Translations under genes and position numbers: made by a program
In this document: positions 497 to 21,931 of the stretch, piece after piece
How positions within the stretch are numbered: the stretch's first letter is position 1
How the letters are laid out: every line of letters starts with the position of its first letter
The notes under the pieces: model-generated
Seen by the model: only the letters and a program-made list of their open reading frames with translations
Told to the model about the DNA's origin: nothing
The model's database searches: none
Assembly (NCBI GenBank): GCA_026712715.1
Contig: JAPOPW010000060.1
Location: forward strand, 1 to 64,000
DNA from: Immundisolibacterales bacterium
GTDB taxonomy: Bacteria > Pseudomonadota > Gammaproteobacteria > HK1
Length of the DNA stretch: 64,000 bases
Direction: 5' to 3'

Positions 497-530
497 CCGC
501 CGCGTGGAGCAACGAGACCCGGAGCGAGGC

Positions 531-2328: not shown

Positions 2329-2373
2329 GGATTCGCTCCGGCGCAGCGCAGCTGCGTCTCTTCGGACGTGCGG

Positions 2374-3564
<1,191 letters not shown>

Positions 3565-3709
3565 GGTCTTCTCGTGGCTATGTCAGGCGAGGAGCGGGGT
3601 CCGCGGCCGCTTCGCCGAGACGCGCGCCGGTGCGCCGCCGGCGGCCAAGCCGGAGCGCCGCGAGCCGATGCTCGCCCGCCGCAAGGAGGGGTCTCCCCCG
3701 TTCGCCGGC

Positions 3710-4501: not shown

Positions 4502-4521
4502 TGCGCCGTGACCCCCGTGTG

Positions 4522-5814: not shown

Positions 5815-6041
5815 GGGGCGAAGCGGGATCCGCAGGCTCGTGTCGAAACGGCAAGGGTATCCTCCCCGCGCGCCGCCTCGCAACGATGCGATGCCGGCGT
5901 GTCGGCGCCGCCGCGCCGGATCCCGCAAGGTGACGGCGGAAGTCGCCGGAGGGTGCTTGCGATACGCATGGTTCTCGCCCACAATCGCGGCACTCGGCGG
6001 GCGCAAGCTCGGTGCGGACCTTCCCTGGAGGGAGGAACGTG

Positions 6042-6083
6042 ATGAAAATCAGCGTCTTTTTCGATAGATCGAAAGCTTGCTGA
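6042..6083 (+). CDS. Possible 13-residue leader peptide upstream of aapJ
   Basis: ATG at 6042 follows a strong ribosome-binding sequence (GGAGGGAGGAACGTG) and opens a 13-codon frame reading MKISVFFDRSKAC before TGA at 6081. It lies about 140 bp upstream of aapJ on the same strand, and its last half is the 16-bp palindrome at 6059-6074. Short translated leaders of this type can couple translation to a downstream structure. No run of one amino acid that would suggest classical attenuation is present, so this is only a candidate. Confidence 0.3.
   Translation: MKISVFFDRSKAC
6059..6074. promoter_or_regulatory. 16-bp perfect palindrome, operator-like
   Basis: TTTCGAT-AG-ATCGAAA is a perfect inverted repeat with a 2-bp centre, in AT-richer sequence than its surroundings, between divergently transcribed metY-like and aapJ genes. 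Its size and position fit a dimeric repressor or activator site, or a small RNA hairpin inside the leader ORF. The regulator is unknown. Confidence 0.4.
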
Positions 6084-6224
6084 AAAGGGGAAATCCGGAA
6101 CTCCGAGCGTGATCCCGAACCGAGGTCGACTGTCGGCACGGCTGGCGGAGGTCGCACTGCGAATTCCGCACCGGCGGGAGGGAGACCTGAACCACCTACC
6201 CATCAACGAAAGGAGTGCAATGGG

Positions 6225-7241: not shown

Positions 7242-7267
7242 TACCTGCCTTCGACTAGGCTGAGTCC

Positions 7268-7301
7268 GGCGCCGGCGCATCCTTTCGGGTGCGCCGGCGC
7301 C
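7268..7301 (+). terminator. Intercistronic stem-loop between aapJ and aapQ
   Basis: A hairpin with a perfect 12-bp GC stem (GGCGCCGGCGCA pairing with TGCGCCGGCGCC) extended by inner C-G pairs around a TTTC loop, 26 bp after the aapJ stop. No T-tract follows, so it is more likely a 3' stabiliser or partial terminator than a full stop, as is common between a binding-protein gene and its permease genes. Confidence 0.7.
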
Positions 7302-7324
7302 GCTCTCCTCCCGAGCATCCTTCG

Positions 7325-8515
7325 ATGGCGGCCGTGCCCATCGAGAATCGAGGACTGATTTCCCGTCTCTGGGGCCATCAGGAGACGCGATCGGTCATCG
7401 TCCAGGTCCTCACGGTTGCCGTCGTCTTTGCGGTGCTGGCGCTCGTGCTGCGCAACGTCGTCATCAACCTCGAGGCGATCGGCAAGGAGTTCAGCTTCAG
7501 CTTCCTGAGCGCTCCGGCCGCCTACGACATCACCTTTTCGCCGTTCATCGAGTATTCGTCGCGCGACACGCACCTGGTCGCGGCGGCGGTCGGCATTCTC
7601 AACACGTTGCTCGTCGCGGTCTGCGGCATCGTGGCCGCCACCTTGCTCGGGGTGACGATGGGAATCCTCCGGCTCTCCCGGAACTGGCTCGTCAACCGCA
7701 TCGTCTACGTGTTTCTCGAGTTCACCCGGAACGTCCCGGTGCTGCTCCACATTCTCCTCGTGCACGGGATCGTGGTGACCACCCTGCCGGCGCCGCGCAA
7801 GGCGATCGACATCGGCGAAACGATGTTCATCTCCAACCGCGGCCTTTACGTCCCTTCGCCGGTGCTGGAGGCCGGCTCCGGCATCGTGATCGCGGTGCTC
7901 GTCGCCGCGATCGTCGCGGCCGCCCTGTTCCGCCGCTGGGCGAAGCGGGTGCAGGTGGAGACCGGAAAGATCTATCCGGTGTTCTGGACCTGCTCCGGGA
8001 TCATCGTCGTCGCGACCGCGTTCGCGTTCGTCGTCATGGGCGCGCCCCTGTCGTGGGATGTCCCGGCCCTCAAGGGCTTCAATTTCCGGGGCGGCATGGC
8101 CCTCAAGCCCGAGTTCCTGGCCCTGTGGCTCGCCCTCACGTACTACACGGCGTGCTTCATCGCCGAGATCGTGCGGGCCGGCATCCTCGCCGTGAGCCAC
8201 GGCCAGACGGAGGCCGCATATGCACTTGGCGTCCGGCCGAATCGGAACCTCCAGCTCGTGGTCCTGCCCCAGGCGCTGCGGATCATCATCCCGCCGCTGG
8301 TGAGCCAGTACCTCAACCTCACCAAGAACTCCTCGCTCGCCATCGCGATCGGCTACATGGACATCACCGCCACCATCGGCGGCATCTCGCTCATGCAGAC
8401 CGGCAAGGAGATGGAGACGATGATCATCGTGATGGGGGTCTATCTCGTCATTTCGCTCCTCATCTCGTTCTTCATGAACTGGTTCAACCGCAGCATCCGG
8501 TACAAGGAGCGCTAG
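7325..8515 (+). CDS. aapQ: General L-amino-acid ABC transporter permease AapQ
   Basis: A 396-residue inner-membrane permease of the His/Glu/Gln/Arg/opine family. It has the AapQ architecture: a first transmembrane helix near residues 30-45, a periplasmic FSFSFLSAPAAYDITFSPFIEYS stretch containing the diagnostic FLSAPA(A)YDI element, then the transporter core. The coupling (EAA) loop reads SHGQTEAAYALGVRPNRNLQLVVLPQALRIIIPPL near the C-terminus. Together with AapM it forms the channel. The start at ATG 7325 (MAAVPIENRG) was chosen over an Arg-rich in-frame extension. It is second in the operon. Confidence 0.94.
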   Translation: MAAVPIENRGLISRLWGHQETRSVIVQVLTVAVVFAVLALVLRNVVINLEAIGKEFSFSFLSAPAAYDITFSPFIEYSSRDTHLVAAAVGILNTLLVAVCGIVAATLLGVTMGILRLSRNWLVNRIVYVFLEFTRNVPVLLHILLVHGIVVTTLPAPRKAIDIGETMFISNRGLYVPSPVLEAGSGIVIAVLVAAIVAAALFRRWAKRVQVETGKIYPVFWTCSGIIVVATAFAFVVMGAPLSWDVPALKGFNFRGGMALKPEFLALWLALTYYTACFIAEIVRAGILAVSHGQTEAAYALGVRPNRNLQLVVLPQALRIIIPPLVSQYLNLTKNSSLAIAIGYMDITATIGGISLMQTGKEMETMIIVMGVYLVISLLISFFMNWFNRSIRYKER

Positions 8516-8572: not shown

Positions 8573-9709
8573 ATGAACGGTTCCGACCCCGCTTCGCGCT
8601 TCGCGCCCGGGACGCATCCGGATCTCCCGCCCCCGGTGCGGACCACCGGCGTCATCGGCTGGTCGCGCGAGAACCTCTTCTCCTCTCCCTTCAACGTCGC
8701 TCTCACCCTCCTTGGCGCCTGGCTTCTGTATTCGATCATTCCTCCGGTGCTGGAATGGGCGTTCATCAAGTCGATCTGGGTGGCCGACTCCCGTACCGAG
8801 TGCTGGGGCGAGATGGAGGTTCCGGAGGAGGCCGCGTGCTGGGCCTTCATCAAGGGGAGGGTGAACCTCTTCATCTACGGGTTCTATCCGGTGGAGGAAC
8901 GCTGGCGGGTCAACCTCTCGTTTGTCCTCCTGGTCCTCGCCATCGTGCCGGTGCTCTACGACCGGCTGCCGGGTCGAAGGCACTGGATGTGGTACGTGGC
9001 CGCGTTCCCGTTCCTGGCCGCCTGGCTGCTCGTCGGGGGGTTCGGCCTTCCCTTCGTGGAAACCGATCAGTTCGGCGGCTTCATGCTGACCCTCGTCATC
9101 GGAGTGACCGGCATTTCGTTCTCGCTCCCCATCGGCATCGCTCTCGCGCTCGGGCGAGCGTCGAGCATGCCCACGGTGCGCACGCTGTGCGTGCTGTTCA
9201 TCGAGTTCATCCGCGGGGTGCCGCTGATTACCCTGCTCTTCGTCGCATCGACCATGCTCAACTACTTTCTCCCGCCCGGCACCTCCTTCGACCTCCTGAT
9301 GCGGGTGCTGATCATGGTCACCCTGTTCTCCTCCGCCTACATCGCCGAGGTCGTCCGGGGGGGCCTGCAGGGGGTTGCGACCGGGCAGGTCGAGGCGGCG
9401 GACTCGCTCGGTCTTTCCTACTGGAAGGCGCAGCGGCTCATCGTCCTGCCCCAGGCGCTCAAGATCTCGATTCCGGGCATCGTCAACACCTTCATCGGGC
9501 TCTACAAGGACACCACCCTGGTGCTCATCATCGGCATGCTCGACCCCCTCGGCATCGGCCGCGCGTCGCTCGCGGACGCGGTGTGGGCGGGGCTCGCGCG
9601 CGAGGTCTACCTCTTCATCGCGGTGTTCTTCTTCCTGTGCTGCTTCGGGATGTCGCGCTACTCGCTCTATCTCGAACGCAAGCTCGACACCGGGCACGCG
9701 AAGGAGTAG
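8573..9709 (+). CDS. aapM: General L-amino-acid ABC transporter permease AapM
   Basis: A 378-residue partner permease. The N-terminal [20 protein letters not shown], the periplasmic [10 protein letters not shown] region ([19 protein letters not shown]) and the C-terminal EAA loop ([32 protein letters not shown]) are characteristic of AapM/BztC proteins. Several hydrophobic helices lie between residues 40 and 370. It is third in aapJQMP, 57 bp after aapQ, and forms the heterodimeric channel with AapQ in the cytoplasmic membrane. Confidence 0.94.
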
Positions 9710-9803
9710 GGCCCGTGCCGCGTCGGGATACCGCCCTCACGGACCATCCGGCGGCGCGGCCGGTCTTCGCGAATACGCAACGTTCAACATCGGATTGCGA
9801 ATC

Positions 9804-10592
<789 letters not shown>

Positions 10593-10601
10593 CGCTCCGT
10601 C

Positions 10602-10631
10602 ATCCGGCACGCGTTCGCGCGCTGGCCGGAT
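10602..10631 (+). terminator. Candidate terminator after aapP
   Basis: ATCCGGC and GCCGGAT form a 7-bp stem around a GC-rich loop, 10 bp after the aapP stop and before the tRNA-Ser gene. No clear T-run follows, so assignment rests on position and pairing only. Confidence 0.4.
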
Positions 10632-10672
10632 TGCCCGCGCGGCGGCTCCGGCGTATCCTTTCCGTCCCGTTC

Positions 10673-10764
10673 GGAGAGGTACCGAAGCGGTCACAACGGC
10701 ACCGACTCGAAATCGGTTGGGGTCATCACGATCCACGTGGGTTCGAATCCCACCCTCTCCGCCA
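10673..10764 (+). tRNA. tRNA-Ser, anticodon CGA, CCA encoded
   Basis: A class II tRNA of 92 nt including CCA. The acceptor stem GGAGAGG pairs with CCTCTCC, the anticodon loop reads CTCGAAA (anticodon CGA, serine UCG codons), a long variable arm follows (about GGTTGGGGTCATCACGATCC) and the T arm is GTGGGTTCGAATCCCAC. The discriminator base is G and CCA is in the genome. Its last 14 nt are the left attachment core of the integrated element; because these bases are duplicated precisely, the tRNA is left intact. Confidence 0.97.
10751..10764 (+). repeat. Left attachment core (attL) in tRNA-Ser 3' end
   Basis: CACCCTCTCCGCCA comprises part of the T stem, the acceptor strand, discriminator and CCA of tRNA-Ser. 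An identical 14-mer occurs at 20909-20922. Flanking bases differ on both sides of the two copies, so the repeat is exactly 14 bp. Confidence 0.88.
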
Positions 10765-10818
10765 CTTGACTCGCGTAACTATCTGAATATACGAATAATC
10801 TCCGCCTTTCCCGCTTCG

Positions 10819-10844
10819 TGTCTCCCCGTGCGAATCCACGGACG
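10819..10844 (+). repeat. Left arm-type repeat of the element
   Basis: A 26-bp sequence beginning TGTCTCCCC and ending CCACGGACG, matching 22 of 26 bases at 20777-20802. The two copies lie in the same orientation just inside the two att cores (55 bp and 107 bp away), the arrangement of integrase arm-binding sites. Confidence 0.5.
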
Positions 10845-10882
10845 ACTAGAGACACCCTGAAGCGTGCGCGACGCGGTTAGGG

Positions 10883-11083
10883 TCAGTCGGCCATCTCGTC
10901 GATTGCCCGAAGCTCGCGCTCGAGGGCGAGGGCCTCGAGCTTCGCCTCGAGCCGGCGCCGGAGCTCGACCCGTGGATCGTTGCGCGGGGGCGCGGGCGGC
11001 CGTTCGCCTTCCGCCCGAACGAGGCTGATATCCGGCCCGCGCGGGCGCGGCTTCCTCGGGTCGTTCGGTATGCCTTGCGCCAC
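10883..11083 (-). CDS. Small phage-type protein of unknown function
   Basis: A 66-residue protein starting with GTG at 11083 just after the DUF2635 stop, and the last gene before the left end of the element. It has a Pro/Arg-rich N-terminus and a charged helix at the C-terminus (about residues 42-66, RRRLEAKLEALALERELRAI) that looks like an amphipathic or coiled-coil segment. GGAGGAAG lies 16-20 nt upstream. The family is not recognised; its place after head genes suggests a minor structural or assembly protein. Confidence 0.5.
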   Translation of the reverse strand: MAQGIPNDPRKPRPRGPDISLVRAEGERPPAPPRNDPRVELRRRLEAKLEALALERELRAIDEMAD

Positions 11084-11084
11084 G

Positions 11085-11264
11085 CTACCGGCGCCGCTTC
11101 CTCCGCACCCGTAGGGGGCGGCCTTCGATGATGCTCTGGTCGCGGAGTCGCCGTCTCCAGTAGCTGGTCCACGGCACGAGCTCGCCGGCCGGGTCCAAGT
11201 GTCGGCTCGCGTCCTCGAGACGAACGAGGAGCCCGGGCGCCGGGCGGACGAATCGCTTTTCCAT
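11085..11264 (-). CDS. DUF2635-like small phage protein
   Basis: A 59-residue protein with the pattern of DUF2635: it opens MEKRFVRPAPGLLVRLEDASR and has the core LVPWTSYWRRRLRDQSI followed by a basic tail. In Mu-like phages such proteins sit immediately before the tail sheath gene. Here no sheath gene follows, only a 66-residue ORF and the element end, so either the protein acts at the head-tail interface or the tail module has been lost. It starts inside the stop of the preceding gene (one-base overlap), indicating coupling. The assignment rests on motif resemblance read by eye. Confidence 0.6.
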   Translation of the reverse strand: MEKRFVRPAPGLLVRLEDASRHLDPAGELVPWTSYWRRRLRDQSIIEGRPLRVRRKRRR

Positions 11265-11866
11265 TACCAGTGCTCCGCTCTCGGTAGCGCGTTGCCGGCG
11301 GCCGCGGTGTCGAACCACACGATCCGCGCCCGGACCTCGGCGATCCGCCGGTCAAGCGCGTTCAGGTCCTGGAGCTCGTACTCGGTCCCGCTCGGGTCCT
11401 TGACGCGCGCGTGTCCGCTCGACACCTGCGCGAGCGCCACCCGCTGCGCCAGAAGGTGCTCGAGGAATTGCCGCTCCTGCGCCGCGATCGTCTCGGCGTC
11501 GGTGCTGTTCGGACTCGGCAGGCGGTAGCGGTCCATCGAGAGCAGGGAGGCGTCCAGCCGCTCCGCGGTCACCATCAGGACCTCGGGGTTGAACCCGTCG
11601 AAGATGCTGATCAACCCCTGCCACGCGACGAGCACCCCGGTTTGCGAAGGCTGCACCGTCGGGAGCAGGTGCGCGTGTTCGCTGGCAAGCGCGATATCGA
11701 TCCGCGACTGGTTGTTCAGGTTCCACCCGCTCACCTGTACCCACGTCGGCGCGGCGCCGGCCGCGGTGACGCGGCGCCACACGAAGAACCGGGCGGCCGC
11801 GGGGGGCGGAACCCACCGCACCATCTCGCCAAAGTTGACGCTATGCCGCATGGGGCAAACGTTCAT
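11264..11866 (-). CDS. Phage head-completion / connector-like protein (unassigned)
   Basis: A 200-residue protein starting at ATG 11866, preceded by GCGAGGAGC. The N-terminal 100 residues look beta-rich with aromatic patches (WVPPPAAARFFVWRRV, WQGLISIFDGFNP). The C-terminal 50 residues (VKDPSGTEYELQDLNALDRRIAEVRARI) resemble gpW-type head-completion proteins, in which a short beta hairpin is followed by a helix with LxxLxxRIxEL spacing. A fusion of a decoration or stopper domain to a gpW-like segment is therefore possible. It is located directly downstream of the terminase region, with a 26-bp overlap. Confidence 0.5.
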   Translation of the reverse strand: MNVCPMRHSVNFGEMVRWVPPPAAARFFVWRRVTAAGAAPTWVQVSGWNLNNQSRIDIALASEHAHLLPTVQPSQTGVLVAWQGLISIFDGFNPEVLMVTAERLDASLLSMDRYRLPSPNSTDAETIAAQERQFLEHLLAQRVALAQVSSGHARVKDPSGTEYELQDLNALDRRIAEVRARIVWFDTAAAGNALPRAEHW

Positions 11867-13690
11867 GCGCGCTCCTCGCTTGCTGGATGAGCTCGGCCTC
11901 GCCGAGCAGGAACGGGACGCCCAGGTGCGAGACGCACGCGAGGCTGTAGACGAGCAGGTCAAGCGGTTCGTTCGCCCGGCCGATCTTCTTCCATTGCAGC
12001 CGGGTCCGGCCGGTGCGCTTGTCCACCACCCTTTCGAGAGTCTCGCTGCAGATCCCTTCGAAGTGCTCCGGGCCATAGGCTGATTCGTCGTCGGGCCACG
12101 TCATAGGGCGAGGCTCAACCCCTGGCACGATTGCCGGAGCAGCGAGAAGACGCTGGCCTTGCCGGCGTTCGTACACACGAGCCCGAGCCCGTTGGGGCCG
12201 TAGTCGTGCAGGCTGTCTTGCGTCACCGACCGTCGCATCAGCACCCCGCCGAACCGCGAGGGCGGCAGTCCCTTGAGTGCCTGGTACCCCGGCCCCGCCG
12301 TGGTGACGAAGTCGGCCACCTGCTCGGTGAAGTGTCCGCCGGAGTCGATGCCCACCATTACCGGCCGGAGCATGCACCCGCTCGCGTGCGGGCGAGGGCC
12401 CTCCATCATCTGCGCGAGCTCGTCCCACGGGGCCGGCGTGCCGGGGTCGCCCGGGATTCGCCGGTACTCGAGCGCCCACCGTCGGAGGCGATACCACCGT
12501 CCTCCGTGCTAAAGCCCGTGATACCCGGGCGAGTCCCATCCGCGAATGCCGGTCACTTCGTCCTCGGACCGCTCGACCTCCTGGTGCCCCCACGCGCTCA
12601 CTTCGGCCTCGAGGCGATTGTCCTGCACGTCGACCGCGCCGATCAGCACGCACGCGCCATCAGGCACGCCCTCGTAGCTCTCGCGGCACGCGACGTCGAT
12701 CTGCTCCGGGGTCACCCCGCCGGCGGGCTCCGGTTTGAACGGCAGGGCGAGCCGGCCTTGCTGGAACGCGCGGATCTCGGCCATTGAGCTGGTCTGCTTC
12801 CGATGGTGGCTCGCCCGCTGCCACGCCCGGGCCACGGTGGCCAGCGTCTCGAAGGGCGAGAGGAAAGCATCGGCGTGATACCCCCTCGTCGCCGTCACCG
12901 CGGCCTTGCGGGTCGGGCGCCATGCACCGGCCCCGATCGCGCGCTTGAGCGCCACCGTGCCGACCTCGGCGCGGCAGCACGGGAAGAGATAGGAGGGCCT
13001 CGCGGTCGCCGTCTTCGGGAGCACCACGTTCGCCCACACGATCGGCGCCCGCTGGCCACAGGCAGGACACGGGACGAACCAGTGTCGCGCGTCGCTCTTC
13101 TCGAGCTCCGTCGTCGTGCGGCAGCTATCCTCCTCGCCGGTGGACGAAGCGGTGATGAGCCGACCCCGGCCACCGAAGGCGGCCATCCGGTCGACGAGCT
13201 CGAGAACGATGTCCCGGCCGAACGCGCGGAGCTCGTCGAGGATGACCACTTCGGCGGTCCGCATGAGGGTTGTGGTTCGCTGTCCTGCCGACAGGACCTC
13301 CAGACGCCCCCCACGTTCGTTTGTACGGCTATGAGGGGGGCGGGGCCGCTCCCAGGACGCGGCCACCTCACCGTCCCGGCACACGCGAGCCCAGGCACGA
13401 AGGCGGGTGCTCATGGCTCGCTTCAGGGCCTCGTCGGGTTCGTAGAAGAGCACCGACCGTCCGGCCGCGTAGTGACCAAGGGCCGCGACGAGGAGGCTCG
13501 CCGTCTTGCCGGACTGGATCGAACCCCGGACGGTCACCTGCTCGAGCGCCGGATCGTCCATCGCGTCGAGCACGTCCGCCCAGGCGGGGTTACCCGGGCG
13601 CCACCGCTTGCCGGCGCGAGGGCCGTCCGCAATGACGATGTTCGCTTCGGCCCAGGCGCGGAGCTTGCTTATACCACGACGGGCCACCAT
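11841..13690 (-). pseudogene. Terminase large subunit, GpA-type, interrupted by an amber codon and a frameshift
   Basis: Residues encoded from ATG 13690 read through the ATPase domain of a GpA-like terminase: Walker A GSIQSGKTASLL, Walker B VVILDELRAFGRD, ITASSTGEED and a Zn-type CPACG motif. A TAG at 12509-12511 ends this part after 393 residues. The same frame continues past TAG with homologous sequence (RWALEYRRIPGDP, then GIDSGGHFTEQV and LMRRSVTQDSLHDYGPNGLG) to a TGA at 12101. The nuclease-domain end (YGPEHFEGICSETLE, RANEPLDLLVYSLACVSHLG) is in another frame starting at ATG 12104, overlapping the stop as ATGA. One substitution plus one indel explains the arrangement; a split gene or an assembly error are alternatives. 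No small terminase subunit is seen. Confidence 0.8.
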
Positions 13691-14166
13691 CGGACCTCCA
13701 GGCCACCATCGCGCGCCCGCTTGGCGAGCTGCAACGTGGTGTCGCCGTAGGCAGCGCGATCGACGAGGGCCACCCCGCGGAGCTCGGCGGCCTTGATGAC
13801 GCGCCGGTCCGGCGAGGGCCACTCCTCGGCCTTGACGTACATCTCGACCGAGAGCCCGCGAAGGATCCGCCGGGCCACCTGGTCGCGCACGTCCTGCCGA
13901 TACTCCGGCACGTCGGCCCGCAGGGACAGGGCCGTCGCGGAGTCGGTGAGCGTGAGCCCGCCGCCGTCGGTCCGCGCGATCAGATCCTCCCGGACGTGCA
14001 TCCGGTTCAGGACAACATCATCGAACCGGAACGCCCCGGGCTCCACCGTCTCGCGGAACGCGCCCGCGATGTCGGCCTCGGCGCCGTAGGGCATGGCGAC
14101 GCCACGGACCACCGCGCCCTTCTCCTCGGCCCGGACCTCGGCGAATCGGTACTCAATCCCGCCCAT
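13669..14166 (-). CDS. Prohead protease, HK97 (U35) family
   Basis: A 165-residue protein. After EYRFAEVRAEEKGAVVRGVAMPYGAEA it shows FRETVEPGAF, a conserved His in RMHVRED and the Ser-containing RRILRGLSVEMYVK, the His and Ser positions of HK97-family prohead proteases, followed by VIKAAELRGVALVDRAAYGDT. It cleaves the scaffold-like N-terminus of the capsid protein during head maturation. The start ATG 14166 overlaps the end of the 44-codon ORF, and its own 3' end overlaps the terminase start by 22 bp. Unlike most HK97-type clusters, it lies after the capsid gene rather than before it. Confidence 0.85.
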   Translation of the reverse strand: MGGIEYRFAEVRAEEKGAVVRGVAMPYGAEADIAGAFRETVEPGAFRFDDVVLNRMHVREDLIARTDGGGLTLTDSATALSLRADVPEYRQDVRDQVARRILRGLSVEMYVKAEEWPSPDRRVIKAAELRGVALVDRAAYGDTTLQLAKRARDGGLEVRWWPVVV

Positions 14167-14287
14167 CGTCCTCGCCCTCCTCGCGAGGCGGCACGATGAC
14201 CCGCTCGGGCCAGTCGGGCCGCTTCTCGACCGGCGGCCAGTCGGGACGAATCTCGACCGGCCGCTGCTTCTCGCGATCCGCACTCAT
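14153..14287 (-). CDS. 44-residue ORF between capsid and protease genes
   Basis: The frame starts with ATG overlapping the capsid stop (ATGA) and ends in TGA overlapping the protease start, so it is translationally coupled on both sides. The product is acidic/basic and Pro/Trp-rich, with an internal near-repeat (RPDWPPVEK and RPDWPERV). It is probably a real small protein, perhaps a scaffold fragment or decoration peptide; it has no recognised family. Confidence 0.5.
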   Translation of the reverse strand: MSADREKQRPVEIRPDWPPVEKRPDWPERVIVPPREEGEDDGRD

Positions 14288-15537
14288 GCGAGCTGAAACG
14301 CCACCCGGGAGAACCCATCCGCGCGCGTGATTTTGAAGTCGGAGAGCAGCACCGCGGTGATGCTGATCCACCCCTGCTTTCGGTTCGTCGCCGAAACCTC
14401 GTCGACGATCAGCGTCACCCCGCCCCACATGGGGCAAAGCGCATTCGTGCCGGCGCCCCGACGGGCGAGGATGCCCTCCTGATCGTTGGTCTGCGGCGCC
14501 GGAATGTTCGCGCTCGCCATGAACCCGGAGAGCATCCGCGAGTAGGTCATGGCAGCGACCTCGCCGGACCCGGTGTTGATGAGCCCGACGAGCTTCCGGT
14601 AGGTGTCGTCTCCGACCACCATCGAGCACTCGCCCAGGTTGCCGGCGTACATGCCGTCGACGCCCCGCGCGAGCTCCGCGAGGGCGAGCTCATAGCTGAC
14701 CTCGGTAGAGGGCGCGGTGAGGGCCGGGAGCCCGCCGTTCGCGGCCGTCGCGAGGAACCCGCCGAAGTTGGGGGCGGTCCCGTTGCCGGCCAGCACCTGC
14801 GCGTCGACCCGATCGGCCACCGCCATCGAAAGGTCGGACCGGAGCACCTCCTCCAGACCCATCATGCGGGCCTTGTCTTCGCGCCGCATGAGGTACTCGA
14901 ACTGAATCCGCGTCGGCGAGAACGTCACCGCGGTCAGGGTCCCGGCCGCGGCGTCGCCGACCGATGCGCCCTTCGCGACGTTGCTCGCTGCCTGCGACCC
15001 GGAGAGCACCGGGACGTTCACGTCGCCGACCGGCACGGACGGCATTTCGACGCCCAGGGTTGCGGTAGCCGAGCGGGCGAAGACGCGCCCGAGCGGGGTC
15101 CGCTGGTTGTCCTGCGTGGTGCCGGGCGCCGGGGTCACCGCGTCGACGCGATGTTCTACACCGCGATCCGCCCGGGCTCGCGGGGCGATGAGCTCCCACG
15201 GGAGTTCTGCACCCGAGAGTCCGCGGTGACGCTGAATCTCGGCCTCGGCGCCGGAGAGCTCGGCCCCCTGGATCAGCGCATGGACCGCGTTCCGGCATTC
15301 GGCCCGGCCCTCCAGGGCGCGGAATTCGCGCTCCTCGGCGGTGAGCCCGTCGCCGCCGCGGTGCTCGTCACCGGCGGCCGCTTCGGCCTCCAGGGCCGCG
15401 CGCCGCTCGGTCTGCACGGTGTCGAGCTCGGCGAGGAGCTCTCGCCGCTTGGCGAGATTCGCCTCGTTCGCCTCGAGCCCGTTGATCTGCTGCTGGAGCT
15501 CGATTGCGCGGAGCTCGAGTTTGGTGGACTTTTTCAC
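14284..15537 (-). CDS. Major capsid protein, HK97 fold
   Basis: A 417-residue capsid protein starting with GTG at 15537 that overlaps the portal stop by 4 bp. Residues 1-60 are a coiled-coil delta/scaffold-like domain (LELRAIELQQQINGLEANEANL), cleaved in HK97-type heads. The mature part shows the phage major-capsid pattern: SVPVGDVNVPVLSG, FSPTRIQFEYLMRREDKARM, LAGNGTAPNFGGFLATA, a SMVVGDDTYRKLVGL segment and a C-terminal ITAVLLSDFKITRADGFSRV strand. It follows the portal gene and comes before the protease gene. HK97 capsid proteins of similar length (about 400) support a full-length gene. Confidence 0.9.
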   Translation of the reverse strand: MKKSTKLELRAIELQQQINGLEANEANLAKRRELLAELDTVQTERRAALEAEAAAGDEHRGGDGLTAEEREFRALEGRAECRNAVHALIQGAELSGAEAEIQRHRGLSGAELPWELIAPRARADRGVEHRVDAVTPAPGTTQDNQRTPLGRVFARSATATLGVEMPSVPVGDVNVPVLSGSQAASNVAKGASVGDAAAGTLTAVTFSPTRIQFEYLMRREDKARMMGLEEVLRSDLSMAVADRVDAQVLAGNGTAPNFGGFLATAANGGLPALTAPSTEVSYELALAELARGVDGMYAGNLGECSMVVGDDTYRKLVGLINTGSGEVAAMTYSRMLSGFMASANIPAPQTNDQEGILARRGAGTNALCPMWGGVTLIVDEVSATNRKQGWISITAVLLSDFKITRADGFSRVAFQLA

Positions 15538-16805
15538 TGGCTATCGCCTCCGTCGTTCGGGGCCGGTGCGGCCGCCGGTAGTTCGTCACCCTGGAGCAGC
15601 GCAACTGCCTGCTCCGGTGTCAGGACGCCCGCCTTGACGAGCGCCGCGAGGGCCTTCGCCTCGGATTCGGGTTGCGGGGGTTCGCGCTTCGGCCCAGGCC
15701 ACGACGGGCGCCGGAGCATGGCCAGCGTGTCGCGATTCATCCTCGGCAGGCCACCGTCCGCGAACGCATCGGACACCATCGCCAGCCACTTCGGCAGCCG
15801 ATAGGCGCGATGCCACCACAGGCGCCGGCGTGCGTACTCGCGGTCGGCGTCCTGCCATGCCATGCGCAGATTCGAGAACGATCCGGTGCTGTAGTCGGAG
15901 CGGAGCTCGGCGAGAGGCAGGTTGAGCGCCGCCGCCGCGTCCGCCGCGAGCTCGGCCTCGTACTTCCGCGCGGTCTCGTCGGGTCCTGCCTGGATGCGGG
16001 CGATCGCCTCGTTCATCCGCAGGTACGGGACGCTGCCGATGCCCGTCGACGTGATCGGCTCGGCGCCGGCCGGGTTGTCTCGGTCGGGTTGCGCGATCAC
16101 GCCCGAGCGCCCGGCCGGCGCCGCCGCGATGCGGTCCGGCGTCGTGTTGGTGATAACGGCGGTGATCTTCGCCATCGCGCCCAGGCCATGCCCGGCAGCG
16201 ATCCGGATGTTCGCGAGGGCGGTCGCGTAGGGAAGGGCCGGGCCTATCCACGGCACCGCGCGCTCCTCGCCATCGTGGCGGTCGCCCAGGTACCACACGT
16301 CGCGCCGCTGGCTCGCAGACTTGCCGATCCGGTAGCCGACCACCTGGCTCCCCCACTCGGGGCCGGTCAGGACGGGCTCGAATCCATCGGCCGGGATGAC
16401 GGTCCCGTCCGGGATGATGAGTAGCTCGCCGTCGACGATGAGGCGACGCAAGAGCTCGCGCTCGGTCTCGGGGTTGCACCGCTCGACCCACAGGTCCGCC
16501 GCGGCCTCCGCGACCTTCTCAGGCACGCCCTCGGGGAACGTCGGCCGCTCGGGCTCGCCGGTCAGGACGCCCCCGATCATGCAACGCTGGTAGGCGACGA
16601 GGAGCGGAGAGATTCGCGAGAGGCGCCGGGACTCGACGATCAACGCCCCCAGGCCGCCCGGGGTCGACAAGGTGCTGGCCAAGACGGCCGGGCTCACCTG
16701 CCACGAGTAGGTGCTCGCCCCGAAGGCGTAGAACTGGCTGAAGAGGGCGCCGACGTCGATGTCGGCCGCCCGAGATTCGGTCTGCCTGTTTCGGAATGGC
16801 CACAT
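15534..16805 (-). CDS. Phage portal protein, lambda-type
   Basis: A 423-residue portal. After MWPFRNRQTESRAAD it has YSWQVSPAVLASTL, a wing region with DGELLIIPDG and the stem-proximal LAELRSDYSTGSFSNLRMAWQDADREYARRR, which is the lambda/B-type portal signature, then WWHRAYRLPKWLAMV. The portal forms the dodecameric channel for DNA entry. The C-terminus (residues 365-423) is Pro/Ala-rich with a short GVLTPEQAVALLQG helix. It is the first morphogenesis gene of the element; in related phages the terminase would precede it. Confidence 0.88.
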   Translation of the reverse strand: MWPFRNRQTESRAADIDVGALFSQFYAFGASTYSWQVSPAVLASTLSTPGGLGALIVESRRLSRISPLLVAYQRCMIGGVLTGEPERPTFPEGVPEKVAEAAADLWVERCNPETERELLRRLIVDGELLIIPDGTVIPADGFEPVLTGPEWGSQVVGYRIGKSASQRRDVWYLGDRHDGEERAVPWIGPALPYATALANIRIAAGHGLGAMAKITAVITNTTPDRIAAAPAGRSGVIAQPDRDNPAGAEPITSTGIGSVPYLRMNEAIARIQAGPDETARKYEAELAADAAAALNLPLAELRSDYSTGSFSNLRMAWQDADREYARRRLWWHRAYRLPKWLAMVSDAFADGGLPRMNRDTLAMLRRPSWPGPKREPPQPESEAKALAALVKAGVLTPEQAVALLQGDELPAAAPAPNDGGDSQ

Positions 16806-16932
16806 GGGGCGCGAATGTGCGCCATCTGTTGACTTTTATCAACACATGGTGGGGAATCGAAACAGAGCTACAAACCGCGCGATGTGGCGGAACCCCGGCG
16901 CAGCGCCCTCCGGGACAGGACCCGCGTTCACG

Positions 16933-17166
16933 TCATTGGGTTTGTTCCCCGTCGAGGCGTAGGGATTGCAGTCTGTGGTGAGTGTCCAGCCATGCCATAC
17001 CGGCCGCAAGAAGTGCGTGCAATGGACTCGAAGGCTCAGGGCCATCCTGTACTCGAATGGCTTGGCTGAAGGCGGTTGCCACCTGCATGAGCAGGCGCAT
17101 TTCGCGTTGGTCGAGCTCCACGACTCGGCCGTCCTCTTCGGTCATCGTTACTTTCGCCTCAGCCAT
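16933..17166 (-). CDS. Hypothetical 77-residue protein of the element
   Basis: The frame starts with ATG 17166 within the 3' end of the preceding gene (8-bp overlap). The product MAEAKVTMTEEDGRVV... is mostly helical and acidic, with a central QREMRLLMQVATAFSQAI segment. It sits where a small terminase or scaffold gene might be expected, but no terminase small-subunit HTH is recognisable. Function unknown. Confidence 0.5.
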   Translation of the reverse strand: MAEAKVTMTEEDGRVVELDQREMRLLMQVATAFSQAIRVQDGPEPSSPLHALLAAGMAWLDTHHRLQSLRLDGEQTQ

Positions 17167-17620
17167 TGGTCTTCGCCACGCCGGACCTGTACTCACCGCA
17201 CCACGCCTCCTCGGCCGTGGCGGGGAACTTCGTCTTCCCGTCGTTCAGGACGCGGGGCGGGTGGCGCCGGCACTCCCCCCCGGCGAGCGGCTGCCGTCGC
17301 GTTTTGTCGTAGCCTCGTCGCCAGAACGTGCACGTCTTGCATTGCGCCATGGTGTCGTCTCCTTGGGTTGTGGTGGTGGTCGTGGTCGGTTGTCGGTCGT
17401 CCTCCAGGTTGAGCCCGTCGGGCAGTATGAGCCAGTAGCCATTCGCCCACGGGGGGCGCTTGAGCCAGCAGTGCTGCACTCGGTGAATCCGCCGCTCGCC
17501 GGGCTCGGCGCCGTGGCGGTGTCGGTGGCCGCAGTAGGGGCAGCGGATCTCCCACCGCTCGAATTCGCTGGTTGGTCCGGTGAGCGGGCGATACCAGTCC
17601 CGCTTGCGCTTGAGCACCAC
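17159..17620 (-). CDS. Zn-finger-like protein of the element, with a possible internal start
   Basis: A continuous 153-codon frame from GTG 17620. The first half has a CPYCGHRHRHG knuckle and the string RVQHCWLKRPPWANGYWLI. A run of Thr codons follows, then a perfect ribosome-binding sequence AAGGAG nine bases before an in-frame ATG at 17350, which begins MAQCKTCTFWRRGYDK. The second half has CxxC, ECRRHPPRVL and CGEYRSG and resembles small Cys-rich phage proteins of about 60 residues. Two products from one frame, or two fused genes, are possible. No known family. Confidence 0.55.
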   Translation of the reverse strand: MVLKRKRDWYRPLTGPTSEFERWEIRCPYCGHRHRHGAEPGERRIHRVQHCWLKRPPWANGYWLILPDGLNLEDDRQPTTTTTTTQGDDTMAQCKTCTFWRRGYDKTRRQPLAGGECRRHPPRVLNDGKTKFPATAEEAWCGEYRSGVAKTNG

Positions 17621-17699
17621 GGCCTCGGGAGCGGGGCGAGCGCTACCGGACGGAGGAGGGGCCCTTTAGGGGCCCCCTCCCTCCCGACCCGTTCGCGGC

Positions 17700-18845
17700 T
17701 CACGACTGCCCCCCCGAGTCGGCCACCTGGAACCCGACGAACCGATGACCTCGGTACGCTTCGCATAGCCGGATCTCCCATCGGCTCGGGCCGAAGTTGG
17801 ACTTGACGCATGCCAGGTCCCGCTCGCGCGGGTTGACCGGGGTCCCCTTCTTCGCGCCGACGGGTCGGCGAAGGTGCAGCACGGCCCGGGCCGCGTCGTG
17901 GTAGGTCCCGCTTCCGGCAACGGAGCCAGCGGGGTCGGAGTAGGTCGGGTCACTCCGCGCCGCCTTCGTGTCGTGCGAGACGATGAGAACCGACGTGCCG
18001 GCCGCTTGCGCCCGCTCGGCGAGCGCGGTCATGAACGCGCGGGCGAGGGCCGCGTCGTTCTGGTTGAACGCGGCGGCCGCGGTGAGCGGATCGAGCACGA
18101 CGAATGCGGGGTGCACGCGCTCGACGGCATGCCACAGCCGCGCCCATCCGGGGCCGGGCTCGCCAGTCCCGGATCGCAAATCGGCCGTCACCCACAGGGG
18201 TTCGGGCGACGGCCAGATCATGAGCTCGTCGTGCACCGGCCCGCCCGCGATCTGCGAGGCGCGCGCGTAGAGGGTCGGCGGGCCGTCCTGGTAGCTCACG
18301 ATGACCACCGGCCCGCCCCTGGTCCGGAGTCCGCACGTCGCCCCCCCGCCCCGCGCCGATTCGAGCGCGAGGGCGAGCACGAGCGTGGTCTTGCCGAGTC
18401 CGCCCATGCTCGAGAACAGGCTTACGGTTCCCTCGGAGAGCACCGGGACGGCGGGGTTGAGCTCGTTCACCCCGGGCTCGTCCCGCCAGATAACGGGGGG
18501 CGGGGGGCGCGTGTCGGCGAAGTCGGAGAGCGGGACGAGCACCGGCACCGCGTGCGCGAGGGACTCGGCGGTAACCCCGGCCTCGGCGAGATACTGATGC
18601 GCGTGCCAGTCGGTCCGCGCTTCGTCCGCGACGACGCGATCGGCCGCGCGGAGCACGTCGTCGAAGACGTCGGCCGTGGTCTCGTCAAGGCCCGTCAGCC
18701 ACGCGTCATGCTCGCGCCCGAGACGCACGTCCGCCAGTTGCAGCTCGCGAGCGACCGCGCCGAGCATCTTGGGGTCGCGGTGCTCGGCTACGCGCTCGAG
18801 GAGCGTGGCGAGCGGTTCCGCCGCGTCAGCGGTGGTATGATTCAT
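17700..18845 (-). CDS. RepA-like hexameric replicative ATPase (AAA_25)
   Basis: A 381-residue RecA-fold ATPase. A helical N-terminus (1-130) is followed by LSEGTVSLFSSMGGLGKTTL with Walker A (146-154), VVIVSYQDGPP (180-190), Walker B AFVVLDPLTAAAAF (247-260), a sensor VLIVSHDTKAAR and a SGTYHDAARAVLHLRR segment. This matches RepA helicases of plasmid RSF1010 type and the AAA_25 replication proteins of islands and satellites, so it likely drives replication of the element after excision. It is located between the AlpA-like regulator and the structural genes, as in phage satellites. Confidence 0.82.
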   Translation of the reverse strand: MNHTTADAAEPLATLLERVAEHRDPKMLGAVARELQLADVRLGREHDAWLTGLDETTADVFDDVLRAADRVVADEARTDWHAHQYLAEAGVTAESLAHAVPVLVPLSDFADTRPPPPVIWRDEPGVNELNPAVPVLSEGTVSLFSSMGGLGKTTLVLALALESARGGGATCGLRTRGGPVVIVSYQDGPPTLYARASQIAGGPVHDELMIWPSPEPLWVTADLRSGTGEPGPGWARLWHAVERVHPAFVVLDPLTAAAAFNQNDAALARAFMTALAERAQAAGTSVLIVSHDTKAARSDPTYSDPAGSVAGSGTYHDAARAVLHLRRPVGAKKGTPVNPRERDLACVKSNFGPSRWEIRLCEAYRGHRFVGFQVADSGGQS

Positions 18846-18922
18846 ACCGTCGAATCCCAGGCATCGGAATCGGCGCCTCGTCCAGCCCGCCCGGCCTCGT
18901 CACCCGGGCGGGCTTTTTCGTT

Positions 18923-19120
18923 TCAGGCGGCGCGCTTGGCGCTTTCGCCCTCGATCCAGGCGGCGACTTCATCAGTGCTCCACCGCGGCGACTTCATGCC
19001 GCCCGGATAGGTCGGCGCCGGGAAGCGCCCGGCCTTCAGCAGCCGATACAGGCTCGGGCGCGAGATATCGAGTCGCCGGCAGACTTCTCCGACACCAATC
19101 AGGGAAAGCTCATGTTCCAT
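18923..19120 (-). CDS. AlpA-like excisionase/transcriptional activator
   Basis: A 65-residue winged-helix/MerR-like protein: IGVGEVCRRLDISRPSLYRLLKAGRFPAPTYPGG followed by SPRWSTDEVAAWIEG, the canonical AlpA/phage-regulator pattern. Such proteins serve as excisionase and as the master activator of satellite genes, including PICIs of Gram-negative hosts. The start at ATG 19120 gives MEHELSLIG. It lies between integrase-side genes and the RepA-like gene. No CI-like repressor is seen nearby. Confidence 0.85.
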   Translation of the reverse strand: MEHELSLIGVGEVCRRLDISRPSLYRLLKAGRFPAPTYPGGMKSPRWSTDEVAAWIEGESAKRAA

Positions 19121-19164
19121 CGTCGCGTCTCTCTCGGTTCGGACGATGGGAACGGTACGGCAGG

Positions 19165-19593
19165 TCAGCTTTGCAGATGAAGCCGAACCATCTGCAAATC
19201 GCGCCGGATGGTCGCCTCGGAATACCCGGTCACCGATGCGACGATTCGGATCGCCTCGGGGTCGGTCAGCGGCTCGACCGGCCGCGTCGATTTGAACCAC
19301 AGAATCATCGTCGCGTAGAGCCACGCGCGCAGCCGCAGCTCGCGCGGTAACCGCCCCTTCGGGAAGTGCTTCCGGTACTCGTCGACCGCGAACACGATGT
19401 GCACGGGCGGTATCAGGTGAACGCGCGGAACGCGCTCGTGCAGAAACAGCCGCCGCACGAATTCAGCCTCGTCAATCGGATCCTGATGTTTGCCCGGGTT
19501 GCGCGGGAGGTACCGTTGCGCGATCGCGTGTTTCATCACGTCCCGGAACACCGCCCCCGTTCGCGTGTCGGGCGGAGGCTTGCGCGCGCTCAT
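19165..19593 (-). CDS. Hypothetical protein with a C-terminal helix-turn-helix-like segment
   Basis: A 142-residue protein whose ATG overlaps the integrase stop as ATGA, so the two are translationally coupled. The centre has EAEFVRRLFLHERVPRVHLIP and the segment RELRLRAWLYATMILWFKSTRPVEPLT. The C-terminus DPEAIRIVASVTGYSEATIRRDLQ reads like the recognition region of a DeoR-type HTH. It may regulate the integrase or the AlpA-like gene that follows. No family was recognised. Confidence 0.55.
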   Translation of the reverse strand: MSARKPPPDTRTGAVFRDVMKHAIAQRYLPRNPGKHQDPIDEAEFVRRLFLHERVPRVHLIPPVHIVFAVDEYRKHFPKGRLPRELRLRAWLYATMILWFKSTRPVEPLTDPEAIRIVASVTGYSEATIRRDLQMVRLHLQS

Positions 19594-20774
19594 GCCGACA
19601 GCCTCACGACGGCCGCCCGCTCGCCCGTCACGTACCGCGCCCATCGTTCCATGACGTCGGCCCGCCGCTCGAGCAGGTCCGACCGCGCATAGGCGGCTTC
19701 GGCCTTGTCCTTGACGACGTGGGCGAGGGCGGCCTCCGCCACGTCCCGGGCGATCCCAGTCTCCCCGCACCAGTCGCGAAACGAGCTCCTGAATCCGTGC
19801 GGGACGGCGTCGATGCCGCGATCCTTCATGGCCTTCGATAGCGTCATGTCCGATAGCGCCCGGCCGCGTTGCGACGGGAACACGAGCGAGTCCGGGGCGC
19901 AGTCGGAAAGCTCGCGGGCGGCCTCCAGGACCGCGAGGGCGGCGCCAGGGAGCGGCACGCGATGCTCCCGGCCCGCCTTCGTGCGCGAGCCCGGAATCGT
20001 CCACACGTCGCCGCTCACTTCGTCCCATCGCATGCCCCGGACCTCGCCCGACCGGGCCGCGGTCAGGACGACGAACTCGAGAGCGAGCCGCGTCGACGGC
20101 CATGCTTGCGAGGCGCGGATCGTCTCCAGGGCGCCCCGGACCTCGGCATGGGGAAGGGCGCGATGGTGCTTGCGCTTCGCCCCGTTCTTCGGGAGCGCGG
20201 CCCGCACCGCTTCGATGGGGGTCGCGTCGCGGTGTCCCCCGGCCACGGCCCACTTGAGCACCGCGCCGATCCGTTGCAACACCCGCCGCGCCGTCTCGCG
20301 TTTGTCGTTCCAGATCGGGCCGACCACCGCGAGCACGTCGTGCGCGGTGATGGCGGACACGCGCTTGGTCATGAGCGGGCCGGCGTAGTCGCGGAGGCTC
20401 GCCCGCCATTGCTTCTCCGACTTCCCGCCGTCGCGCCAGTTGGGACGCTGCAAGGCGAGCACGGCCTCGACACCCTCGGCGAAGGTCGGGACGCGCTCGG
20501 GGTTGCGGCGCGGGTCGCCGCCGGTGCGGGCGATCTTCCGGTTCGCCTGCGCCTTCGCCCGGGCCTCGCTCGGCGTGGTCCACTTGACGGAGCCGAGCCC
20601 GATGTCGACGCGCTTCCCGTCGATGGTCAGCCGTTGAAGGTAGGACTTCCGGATCGTCGTGGTGCCAGCCTTCGACGTGTGCGCCTGAACGTACAGGTAC
20701 AGCCCCGCGTCCCCGTCATGGTACTTTCCCGGTTCGGTGACGGCGGCGACGAATTTGGACGTTAGGCGTTTCAT
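19590..20774 (-). CDS. int: Tyrosine-type site-specific integrase
   Basis: A 394-residue integrase of the P4/DUF4102 type: an N-terminal arm-binding domain (LTSKFVAAVTEPGKYHDGDAGLYL), a core-binding domain (about 95-195) and a catalytic domain with Arg241 in TAARSGEVRGMRW, His326 and Arg329 in HGFRSSFRDWC, His352 in ALAHVV and the nucleophile Tyr362 in AAYARSD. It should recombine the 14-bp core in tRNA-Ser. The start ATG 20774 follows the conserved repeats near the right end; the promoter must lie between 20775 and 20908 inside the element. It transcribes toward the tRNA and away from the right att site. Confidence 0.93.
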   Translation of the reverse strand: MKRLTSKFVAAVTEPGKYHDGDAGLYLYVQAHTSKAGTTTIRKSYLQRLTIDGKRVDIGLGSVKWTTPSEARAKAQANRKIARTGGDPRRNPERVPTFAEGVEAVLALQRPNWRDGGKSEKQWRASLRDYAGPLMTKRVSAITAHDVLAVVGPIWNDKRETARRVLQRIGAVLKWAVAGGHRDATPIEAVRAALPKNGAKRKHHRALPHAEVRGALETIRASQAWPSTRLALEFVVLTAARSGEVRGMRWDEVSGDVWTIPGSRTKAGREHRVPLPGAALAVLEAARELSDCAPDSLVFPSQRGRALSDMTLSKAMKDRGIDAVPHGFRSSFRDWCGETGIARDVAEAALAHVVKDKAEAAYARSDLLERRADVMERWARYVTGERAAVVRLSA

Positions 20775-20776
20775 GG

Positions 20777-20802
20777 TGTCTCCCCCTGTGTCTCCACGGA
20801 CG
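20777..20802 (+). repeat. Right arm-type repeat of the element
   Basis: Second copy of the 26-bp sequence found at 10819-10844 (22 of 26 identical, same orientation). It lies immediately upstream of the integrase start, where integrase binding could also repress its own promoter. Confidence 0.5.
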
Positions 20803-20908
20803 GGAGGATATATCACGAAACAGCGAGATACAATCGGATACGATAAGCCTTTGAATATCCGAACATCTTGGCACGGTGCGAGACAGTGAGAAACACCCCG
20901 CGGGGGGA

Positions 20909-20922
20909 CACCCTCTCCGCCA
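20909..20922 (+). repeat. Right attachment core (attR)
   Basis: CACCCTCTCCGCCA, identical to the last 14 nt of tRNA-Ser. No other tRNA structure surrounds it, so it marks the junction between the element and the chromosome. The host hydroxyacid dehydrogenase gene starts 62 bp further on. Confidence 0.88.
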
Positions 20923-20983
20923 TCGTTCGCATCTGCTTGGCGTATCCCGGTGGCAAGCGGTCCACGGATTGCCGGAGACATCG

Positions 20984-21931
20984 ATGCGGCCGGTGCTGAT
21001 CGCCCACAACGAGCCGGACGATTTCCGCGACCTGCTTGCCGGCCGGTTTCCTGGTGTCGAGTTCGTGTACGCAGCGACGGCCGAGGGGGTCGCCGAGGGG
21101 CTTGCGCGGCACGACCCCGAGGTGGTCTTCTCGGTCAAGCATCCGGGGTTTCCGGGCCCCGTGCACGCTCCGATCCCGACTCATCCCTCGGTGCGCTGGA
21201 TTCAGGTGGGCGGCTCGGGGTTCGACCATCTCCAGCCCTGGGACGAGGCAAGGGTCACCGTGACCAACGGCGCCGGGGTTCTCGCCCCCTACCTTGCGGA
21301 AAGCGTTGCCGGCGCCATGCTCGCCCTTGGCTGCGGATTCCTCGGGTACCTCGAGCAGCAGCGCGCGCGGCGCTGGGCGCCGGTATCGTTCACGCCGCTC
21401 CGTGGCCGGACGCTGCTCGTCGTCGGCTTCGGGAAGATCGGGGCCTGTGTCGCGCGCAACGCGAAGGCGCTCGGCATGCGGGTGGTGGCGATTCGGGGAC
21501 GGCCCGCCCCCCATCCCGCGGCCGACGAGATGCACGGTCCGCAAGCGCTCGAAACGCTTCTTCCGGAGGCCGACTTCGTTTCCCTGCACGTGCGGTTGAA
21601 CGCCGCGACGCACGGGCTCCTTTCACGCGGCGCAATCGCGGCGATGAAGCCGGGGGCGGTGCTGGTCAATACCTCGCGGGGGGCGGTGGTCGACGAGTCC
21701 GCTCTGATCGAAGCGCTTCGTTCGGGACACCTCGCAGGCGCCTATCTCGACGTGTTCGAGACCGAGCCTCTGCCCGCCACGAGTCCGCTGTGGTCCATGC
21801 CCAACGTTCTCGTTACCCCGCACGCGTCGGACAACGTCGTCGGTTGGCCCCGCCGCTTCGCGGAGCTGTTCGCGGACAATCTCGAACGCTGGCGCTCCGG
21901 CGAGCCGCTCCAGAACGTCGTTTCCCAATGA
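20984..21931 (+). CDS. D-2-hydroxyacid dehydrogenase (NAD(P)-dependent)
   Basis: A 315-residue protein of the D-isomer 2-hydroxyacid dehydrogenase family. The nucleotide-binding loop is VGFGKIGACVARNA (about 150-163), and VRWIQVGGSGFDHL, NGAGVLAPYLAESVAGAML, LVNTSRGAVVDESALIEAL and LDVFETEPLP are typical substrate and catalytic regions, with the expected Arg in NTSRG, Glu in VFETEPLP and His in VTPHASDN. It reduces a 2-keto acid or oxidises the corresponding D-hydroxyacid. The first chromosomal gene after the element; its promoter lies at or near attR, so integration may have changed its upstream sequence. Confidence 0.9.
   Translation: MRPVLIAHNEPDDFRDLLAGRFPGVEFVYAATAEGVAEGLARHDPEVVFSVKHPGFPGPVHAPIPTHPSVRWIQVGGSGFDHLQPWDEARVTVTNGAGVLAPYLAESVAGAMLALGCGFLGYLEQQRARRWAPVSFTPLRGRTLLVVGFGKIGACVARNAKALGMRVVAIRGRPAPHPAADEMHGPQALETLLPEADFVSLHVRLNAATHGLLSRGAIAAMKPGAVLVNTSRGAVVDESALIEALRSGHLAGAYLDVFETEPLPATSPLWSMPNVLVTPHASDNVVGWPRRFAELFADNLERWRSGEPLQNVVSQ

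What the first reader, a model, noticed from the sequence alone, without database searches (positions are those of the whole stretch)
10751..20922. Tail-less capsid-encoding element in tRNA-Ser: candidate capsid-forming satellite
Seen: a 10.16-kb unit with exact att cores holds integrase, AlpA-like regulator, RepA-like ATPase, portal, HK97-fold capsid protein, prohead protease, GpA-type terminase and small connector-like genes, all on one strand, and no tail, lysis or CI-repressor genes. Known: capsid-forming PICIs encode their own heads but borrow tails and lysis from helper phages. Inferred: this element is such a satellite in a group where they are little described, with a lambda-type portal and GpA-type terminase. 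A tail-less decayed prophage is the alternative.
Basis: partly seen in the sequence, partly recalled or inferred. Interest (0 to 1): 0.85.

Follow-up and report, generated by a model that had tools for sequence, protein, structure and literature searches.

The report
Tail-less phage satellite with broken packager
This is a 10-kb piece of integrated DNA that carries the genes for an empty virus head but no tail; it most likely descends from a class of 'satellites' that make their own heads and borrow tails from real phages, but its DNA-packing motor is of an unusual type and is broken in this copy.

Summary
The element is real: 10,158 bp between 14-bp direct repeats at the 3' end of tRNA-Ser. 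It has integrase, AlpA-like and RepA-like genes, lambda-type portal, HK97-type capsid, S78 protease, GpA-type terminase and DUF2635, all on one strand, with no tail or lysis gene found. One important correction: the terminase is not intact. An in-frame TAG and a later frame change split its nuclease domain into three pieces.

The satellite reading is mostly supported. The capsid is closer to those of about 10-kb islands with the layout of capsid-forming PICIs than to nearly all tailed-phage capsids sampled. Of 80 related chromosomal loci, 41 are bounded by tRNA repeats; their median size is 10.65 kb. Six use the same end of tRNA-Ser with related integrases. A second, more standard tail-less head cluster lies in the same genome.

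It also differs. Portal and terminase are lambda/Mu-like, HNH and small terminase are missing, and none of 182 capsid-bearing relatives carries this terminase. One relative with a similar capsid is a tailed phage, and DUF2635 normally sits directly before the tail sheath gene, so a decayed prophage is not excluded. Best reading: a mosaic, now packaging-defective, capsid-encoding satellite. It is not filed as a cfPICI member, because defining features fail.

The parts
10673..10764 (+). tRNA-Ser (CGA), attachment gene
   Evidence: ARAGORN
10751..10764 (.). att core copy at tRNA end, CACCCTCTCCGCCA
   Evidence: exact 14-bp repeat
20909..20922 (.). att core copy at integrase end
   Evidence: exact 14-bp repeat; only >=11-nt match downstream
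19590..20774 (-). tyrosine integrase, 394 aa
   Evidence: PF13356, PF22022, PF00589; phmmer 2e-101 to L117
19165..19593 (-). unknown 142-aa protein
   Evidence: only a sub-threshold HTH match; no PHROG match
18923..19120 (-). AlpA-like excisionase/regulator, 65 aa
   Evidence: HTH_17 7e-9, phrog_66 3e-10
17700..18845 (-). RepA-like AAA ATPase, 381 aa
   Evidence: AAA_25 4e-21; related genes in 9 of 80 capsid islands
17159..17620 (-). cysteine-rich protein of unknown function
   Evidence: sub-threshold zinc-ribbon matches
16933..17166 (-). unknown 77-aa protein
   Evidence: no significant family match
15534..16805 (-). lambda-type portal protein, 423 aa, open
   Evidence: Phage_portal_2 2e-12, phrog_21 4e-16
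14284..15537 (-). HK97-type major capsid protein, 417 aa, open
   Evidence: Phage_capsid 9e-6; capsid tree
13669..14166 (-). prohead protease S78, 165 aa, open
   Evidence: PF04586 4e-12, profile 4-157 of 165
12509..13690 (-). GpA-type large terminase, piece 1 (ATPase and start of nuclease), ends at in-frame TAG
   Evidence: GpA_ATPase 7-247/247, GpA_nuclease 1-102/294
12104..12508 (-). terminase piece 2, same frame after the TAG
   Evidence: GpA_nuclease 103-223
11841..12104 (-). terminase piece 3, other frame
   Evidence: GpA_nuclease 236-289
11264..11866 (-). 200-aa protein, possible neck/gpW-like half at C-terminus (topology only)
   Evidence: no family match; low-confidence helix-hairpin-helix model
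11085..11264 (-). DUF2635 protein (Mup38-like)
   Evidence: PF10948 1e-11, phrog_208 2e-14
10883..11083 (-). last 66-aa ORF before att
   Evidence: no family match; weak match to end of a C53 element gene

Best explanation
An integrated, tRNA-Ser-targeting satellite element descended from the capsid-forming, tail-less type, whose packaging side has been replaced by a lambda/Mu-like set and is now broken. Inferred mode of action of the intact ancestor: integrase and AlpA excise it, the RepA-like ATPase helps replicate it, capsid, protease and portal build its own head, its terminase fills that head with about 10 kb of DNA, neck proteins (DUF2635, perhaps the 200-aa protein) join it to a tail supplied by a helper phage, and the helper lyses the cell. 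Shown here: gene content, att repeats, absence from relatives, kinship of capsid, protease and integrase with tail-less 10-kb islands, and the broken terminase. Inferred: replication, head assembly, tail borrowing. In this copy, head assembly may still be possible but self-packaging is probably lost.
For: att repeats and empty neighbours. The capsid profile finds four tail-less tRNA-bounded islands in a 398-genome sample. The best 80 viral contigs with this capsid are mostly short, many 10-12 kb; 74 carry one terminase type and 75 an HNH gene. Of 80 chromosomal loci, 41 are tRNA-bounded, median 10.65 kb, all but one 9.6-11.4 kb, against 10.16 kb here. Six loci with tRNA-Ser have 14-15-bp cores sharing TCCGCCA and related integrases, 1e-51 to 1e-59. 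L117 shares integrase (2e-101), AlpA, capsid and protease. The capsid tree places it with the islands, split from 10-14 tailed-phage capsids at 100/100. Head genes are not in the order of phages with such portals.
Against: Terminase broken. No HNH and no recognisable small terminase. None of 182 capsid relatives has a GpA-type terminase like this one. One relative with a capsid as close as L117's is a tailed phage with a tape-measure gene (L283). DUF2635 normally stands just before the sheath gene. No helper found in the same genome with two tail families.
Confidence: 0.62

Rival explanations
1. A decayed prophage: a tailed phage with a GpA terminase and probably a contractile tail entered at tRNA-Ser, lost everything from the sheath gene onwards, and is now decaying, starting with the terminase.
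For: Broken terminase; DUF2635 is the usual last gene before the sheath; portal and terminase are of tailed-phage type; tailed phage L283 has a related capsid.
Against: Both att copies are intact and the length equals that of the tail-less islands. Order is portal-capsid-protease-terminase, while in all 20 compared loci with such a portal and terminase the portal follows the terminase, so a single deletion does not give it. Portal, capsid, protease, integrase and ATPase genes remain open. No sheath remnant was recognised before att.
Confidence: 0.27
2. A working capsid-forming satellite: the terminase breaks are sequencing or assembly errors, or are bridged (readthrough and frameshift).
For: All pieces of the nuclease domain are present and nearly contiguous in the profile; the other head genes are open.
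Against: Two separate breaks lie in one gene, while at least nine neighbouring host genes match the congener over 97% or more without a break, so assembly error is unlikely. HNH and small terminase were also not found.
Confidence: 0.08
3. A domesticated head cluster kept by the host for another use (gene-transfer-agent-like particle or tailless capsid).
For: Head genes stay open while the packaging motor is lost.
Against: Mobile-element features are intact, and the element is absent from both congeners; no conservation by descent.
Confidence: 0.03

Closest known systems
Capsid-forming PICIs (cfPICIs), e.g. E. coli EcCIEDL933
   Same: Integrase at a tRNA gene, AlpA-like gene, own capsid, protease and portal, a large terminase gene, no tail or lysis genes, about 10 kb
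   Different: Reported cfPICIs encode head-tail connectors, large and small terminase and HNH (PMC10690885), and a Pri-Rep initiator (PMC10448857). Here HNH and small terminase were not found, a helicase-like ATPase stands in place of Pri-Rep, the terminase is GpA-type and broken, and the portal is lambda-type
The tail-less capsid islands found here (L111-L114, L117, L198-L276)
   Same: Capsid (25-35% identity), protease, often integrase and AlpA, sometimes the RepA-like ATPase; tRNA-bounded, 9.6-11.4 kb
   Different: They have a Terminase_1-type terminase with HNH next to the capsid, a different portal, and usually the order terminase-HNH-capsid-protease-portal
Tailed phages with GpA terminase, lambda portal and DUF2635 (Serratia phage BZS1, Bordetella PBb001; Roseobacter CRP-811 without DUF2635 annotated)
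   Same: Terminase and portal families; DUF2635 in the first two
   Different: They have full tails, the portal comes after the terminase, and the capsid is distant
Streptomyces satellites MulchRoom/MiniFlayer (PMC10690885)
   Same: Satellites with their own capsid and packaging genes
   Different: Their genes do not show the integrase-AlpA-RepA layout seen here, and they parasitise virulent phages; not compared by sequence

Membership tests
capsid-forming PICI (cfPICI) | integrase with att repeats, often at a tRNA gene | tested here: met
capsid-forming PICI (cfPICI) | AlpA homologue | tested here: met
   HTH_17 7e-9, phrog_66 3e-10; Phage_AlpA itself just below cut-off
[quoted passage not shown]
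   all three frames open
capsid-forming PICI (cfPICI) | head-tail connectors | tested here: inconclusive
   DUF2635 found; 200-aa gene without family match, low-confidence model
capsid-forming PICI (cfPICI) | intact large terminase | tested here: not met
   in-frame TAG and frame change
capsid-forming PICI (cfPICI) | small terminase | tested here: not met
   no match in any ORF scanned; a very divergent one could be missed
capsid-forming PICI (cfPICI) | HNH endonuclease next to packaging genes | tested here: not met
   none; 154 of 160 loci in the two main capsid searches have one
capsid-forming PICI (cfPICI) | Pri-Rep type replication initiator | tested here: inconclusive
   AAA_25 ATPase with weak matches to primase/helicase PHROGs
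capsid-forming PICI (cfPICI) | no tail and no lysis genes | tested here: met
capsid-forming PICI (cfPICI) | mobilised in particles made of its own head and a helper's tail | not testable with these tools
   needs induction and particle sequencing
tailed prophage | tail, lysis and lysogeny genes | tested here: not met

The most novel reading that the evidence does not exclude
Capsid-forming satellites can exchange their whole portal-terminase-neck set for one from lambda/Mu-like contractile-tailed phages while keeping integrase, regulator, capsid and protease, and so could switch to helpers with another kind of tail. This element would be the first seen example, caught after its terminase broke.
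Probability: 0.35. Interest if true: 0.65.

Novelty: new variant of a known kind. Interest (0 to 1): 0.5.

Why it matters
If true, it shows that the packaging engine and neck of head-making satellites are exchangeable against a conserved capsid and a fixed genome length, which makes helper switching by module swap a testable idea. The search also shows that tail-less capsid islands of a very uniform 10-11 kb are common in Rhodobacterales and other alphaproteobacteria.

Tried and rejected
Single-protein scans with portal, capsid, RepA and terminase found nothing in viral contigs, and terminase found nothing in genome contigs; only profiles that include relatives worked. Portal and capsid have no match in GenBank phages at E 1e-5 and 1e-3; portal none in plasmids. 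Portal in 398 genomes of the phylum at E 1e-8: none but itself. E. coli genomes hold neither of two island stretches tested. A two-sequence capsid profile picked poor patterns in viral contigs. The model of the 200-aa gene is too weak for a fold match. I first read the capsid clade as satellite-only; a tailed phage inside it (L283) weakened that. PADLOC gave nothing convincing. The congener comparison for assembly quality mixes real genes with antisense ORFs, so only nine clear cases are counted.
Full report
OBSERVATION. The window holds a unit of 10,158 bp (start to start) between two exact copies of CACCCTCTCCGCCA, at 10751-10764 (the 3' end of tRNA-Ser CGA) and 20909-20922. No other match of 11 nt or more to the last 45 nt of the tRNA gene occurs in the 53 kb downstream, and the second copy lies 135 bp beyond the integrase start. 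Two congeners lack the portal and the insertion. In the complete one, tRNA-Ser is about 300 bp from the NAD synthetase gene that begins near 22100 in the window. In the other, a different gene stands between them. The dehydrogenase gene at 20982-21931 is elsewhere or absent in relatives, so the site is a variable junction and the empty site is not base-for-base clean. G+C is 69.5% in the element against 68.5 and 69.9% outside, so composition does not mark it.

GENES. All on the minus strand, from integrase to tRNA: integrase, a 142-aa unknown, AlpA-like, AAA_25 ATPase, a cysteine-rich protein, a 77-aa unknown, lambda-type portal, HK97-type capsid, S78 protease, GpA-type terminase, a 200-aa protein, DUF2635, a 66-aa ORF. 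No tail, lysis or repressor family was hit. The capsid keeps an N-terminal stretch like the delta domain of HK97-type capsids, and the protease keeps His, Ser and Glu motifs expected of S78 proteases (both read by eye).

THE TERMINASE IS BROKEN. Piece 1 (12509-13690) holds the whole GpA ATPase domain and positions 1-102 of the 294-position nuclease profile, then stops at an in-frame TAG. Piece 2 goes on in the same frame (103-223). Piece 3 is in another frame (236-289). So one stop and one frame change lie in one gene. At least nine nearby host genes match the congener over 97% or more of their length without an internal stop, so poor assembly is not a likely cause.

RELATIVES. Single sequences found nothing. 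In the same genome, contig C53 carries a second head cluster with a capsid 30% identical: neck-like gene, Terminase_1-type terminase, HNH, capsid, protease, portal, then host genes. A profile of the two capsids found four further genomes in a sample of 398. Each has a 9.7-10.9 kb tRNA-bounded stretch with terminase, HNH, capsid and portal; the one island scanned in most of its length (L111) showed protease, portal and integrase and no tail family. In viral contigs a six-capsid profile found 246 relatives. The best 80 lie mostly on short contigs, many of 10-12 kb; 74 have the C53-type terminase, 75 HNH, 70 the C53-type portal, none the window-type terminase. In chromosomes the best 80 were mainly Rhodobacterales and other alphaproteobacteria; 77 have the C53-type terminase, 79 HNH, 23 a related integrase, 9 a related RepA-like gene, none the window-type terminase. 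Forty-one of them are bounded by repeats of 14 nt or more from a tRNA gene: median 10,650 bp, range 9,588-11,365 apart from one of 6,585. Six of these use tRNA-Ser with 14-15-bp cores that share TCCGCCA with the window, and their integrases match at 1e-51 to 1e-59. L117 (11.5 kb) shares integrase at 2e-101, AlpA at 1e-6, capsid at 2e-29 and protease at 1e-22. The nearest capsid is L197, a 9,980-bp gammaproteobacterial contig (35%, E 2e-59), with a C53-type terminase and portal. A last viral scan added 22 loci, again without the window-type terminase.

TREE. The window capsid falls with the islands and apart from 10-14 tailed-phage capsids (100/100), but branches are long and the phage set is small. 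One member of the window's own sub-group, L283, is a tailed phage with a tape-measure protein (PHROG 2e-56). So the capsid alone does not prove satellite life; the integrase, its site and the length carry weight too.

THE OTHER HALF. Portal and terminase are lambda/Mu-like and very divergent: 24-30% in the best terminase relatives. In all 20 loci with a related portal and terminase the portal follows the terminase; here it comes before capsid, protease and terminase. In tailed phages with DUF2635 the next gene is the tail sheath; here it is a 66-aa ORF and then att. This fits capture of a head-neck set that ended at DUF2635, and also a prophage cut at the same place. The changed gene order, the two intact att copies and the satellite-like length favour the first.

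MECHANISM. See the best explanation. Excision, replication, head building, packaging of about 10 kb and borrowing of a tail are inferred from gene families; none was tested. Two tail families searched in the host genome gave no hit, so no resident helper is known, but those two families do not cover all tails and the assembly is in 82 contigs.

COMPARISON. By the published list (PMC10690885; PMC10448857) cfPICIs carry capsid, protease, portal, connectors, large and small terminase, HNH, AlpA and Pri-Rep. The window meets capsid, protease, portal, AlpA, integrase and absence of tails. It fails intact large terminase, small terminase and HNH; connectors and replication initiator are open. I therefore say that it looks like and probably descends from such satellites, but do not file it as a member. 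PMC11389934 reports that cfPICI capsids form three separate clades among phage capsids, which agrees with a tailed phage lying inside the present group.

VERDICT. A real, well-bounded element; interpretation partly supported; a mosaic variant of a known kind, defective in this copy.

Noticed in passing
L012 (G000:C53:1-14000), 131-7594: A second head-gene cluster in the same genome with open Terminase_1-type terminase, HNH, capsid, protease and portal, followed directly by host genes; its integrase side is cut off by the contig end.
   Followed up: partly
L198-L276: Tail-less capsid islands of very uniform size (median 10.65 kb) at many different tRNA genes in Rhodobacterales, Rhizobiales, Sphingomonadales and a few gammaproteobacteria.
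   Followed up: partly
L283:38-9592: A tailed phage contig (tape measure) with capsid, protease, HNH and portal related to the satellites; a possible link between tailed phages and these islands.
   Followed up: partly
L116:3980-14124: A tRNA-Arg-bounded stretch of about 10 kb with integrase, portal, protease, capsid and a tape-measure gene but no terminase found: a likely decayed prophage of satellite-like length, a useful warning case.
   Followed up: partly
window 20982-21931: A 2-hydroxyacid dehydrogenase-like gene between the element and NAD synthetase that is missing here in congeners G001 and G002; the tRNA-Ser junction is variable beyond the element.
   Followed up: partly
window 10883-11083 and L012:6858-7220: The last ORF before att shares a weak C-terminal motif with a gene at the edge of the C53 head cluster.
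   Followed up: partly
L197 (9,980 bp): Gene order looks rotated (portal before terminase, capsid and protease at the contig end), as if the contig were a circular element cut at another point.
   Followed up: no
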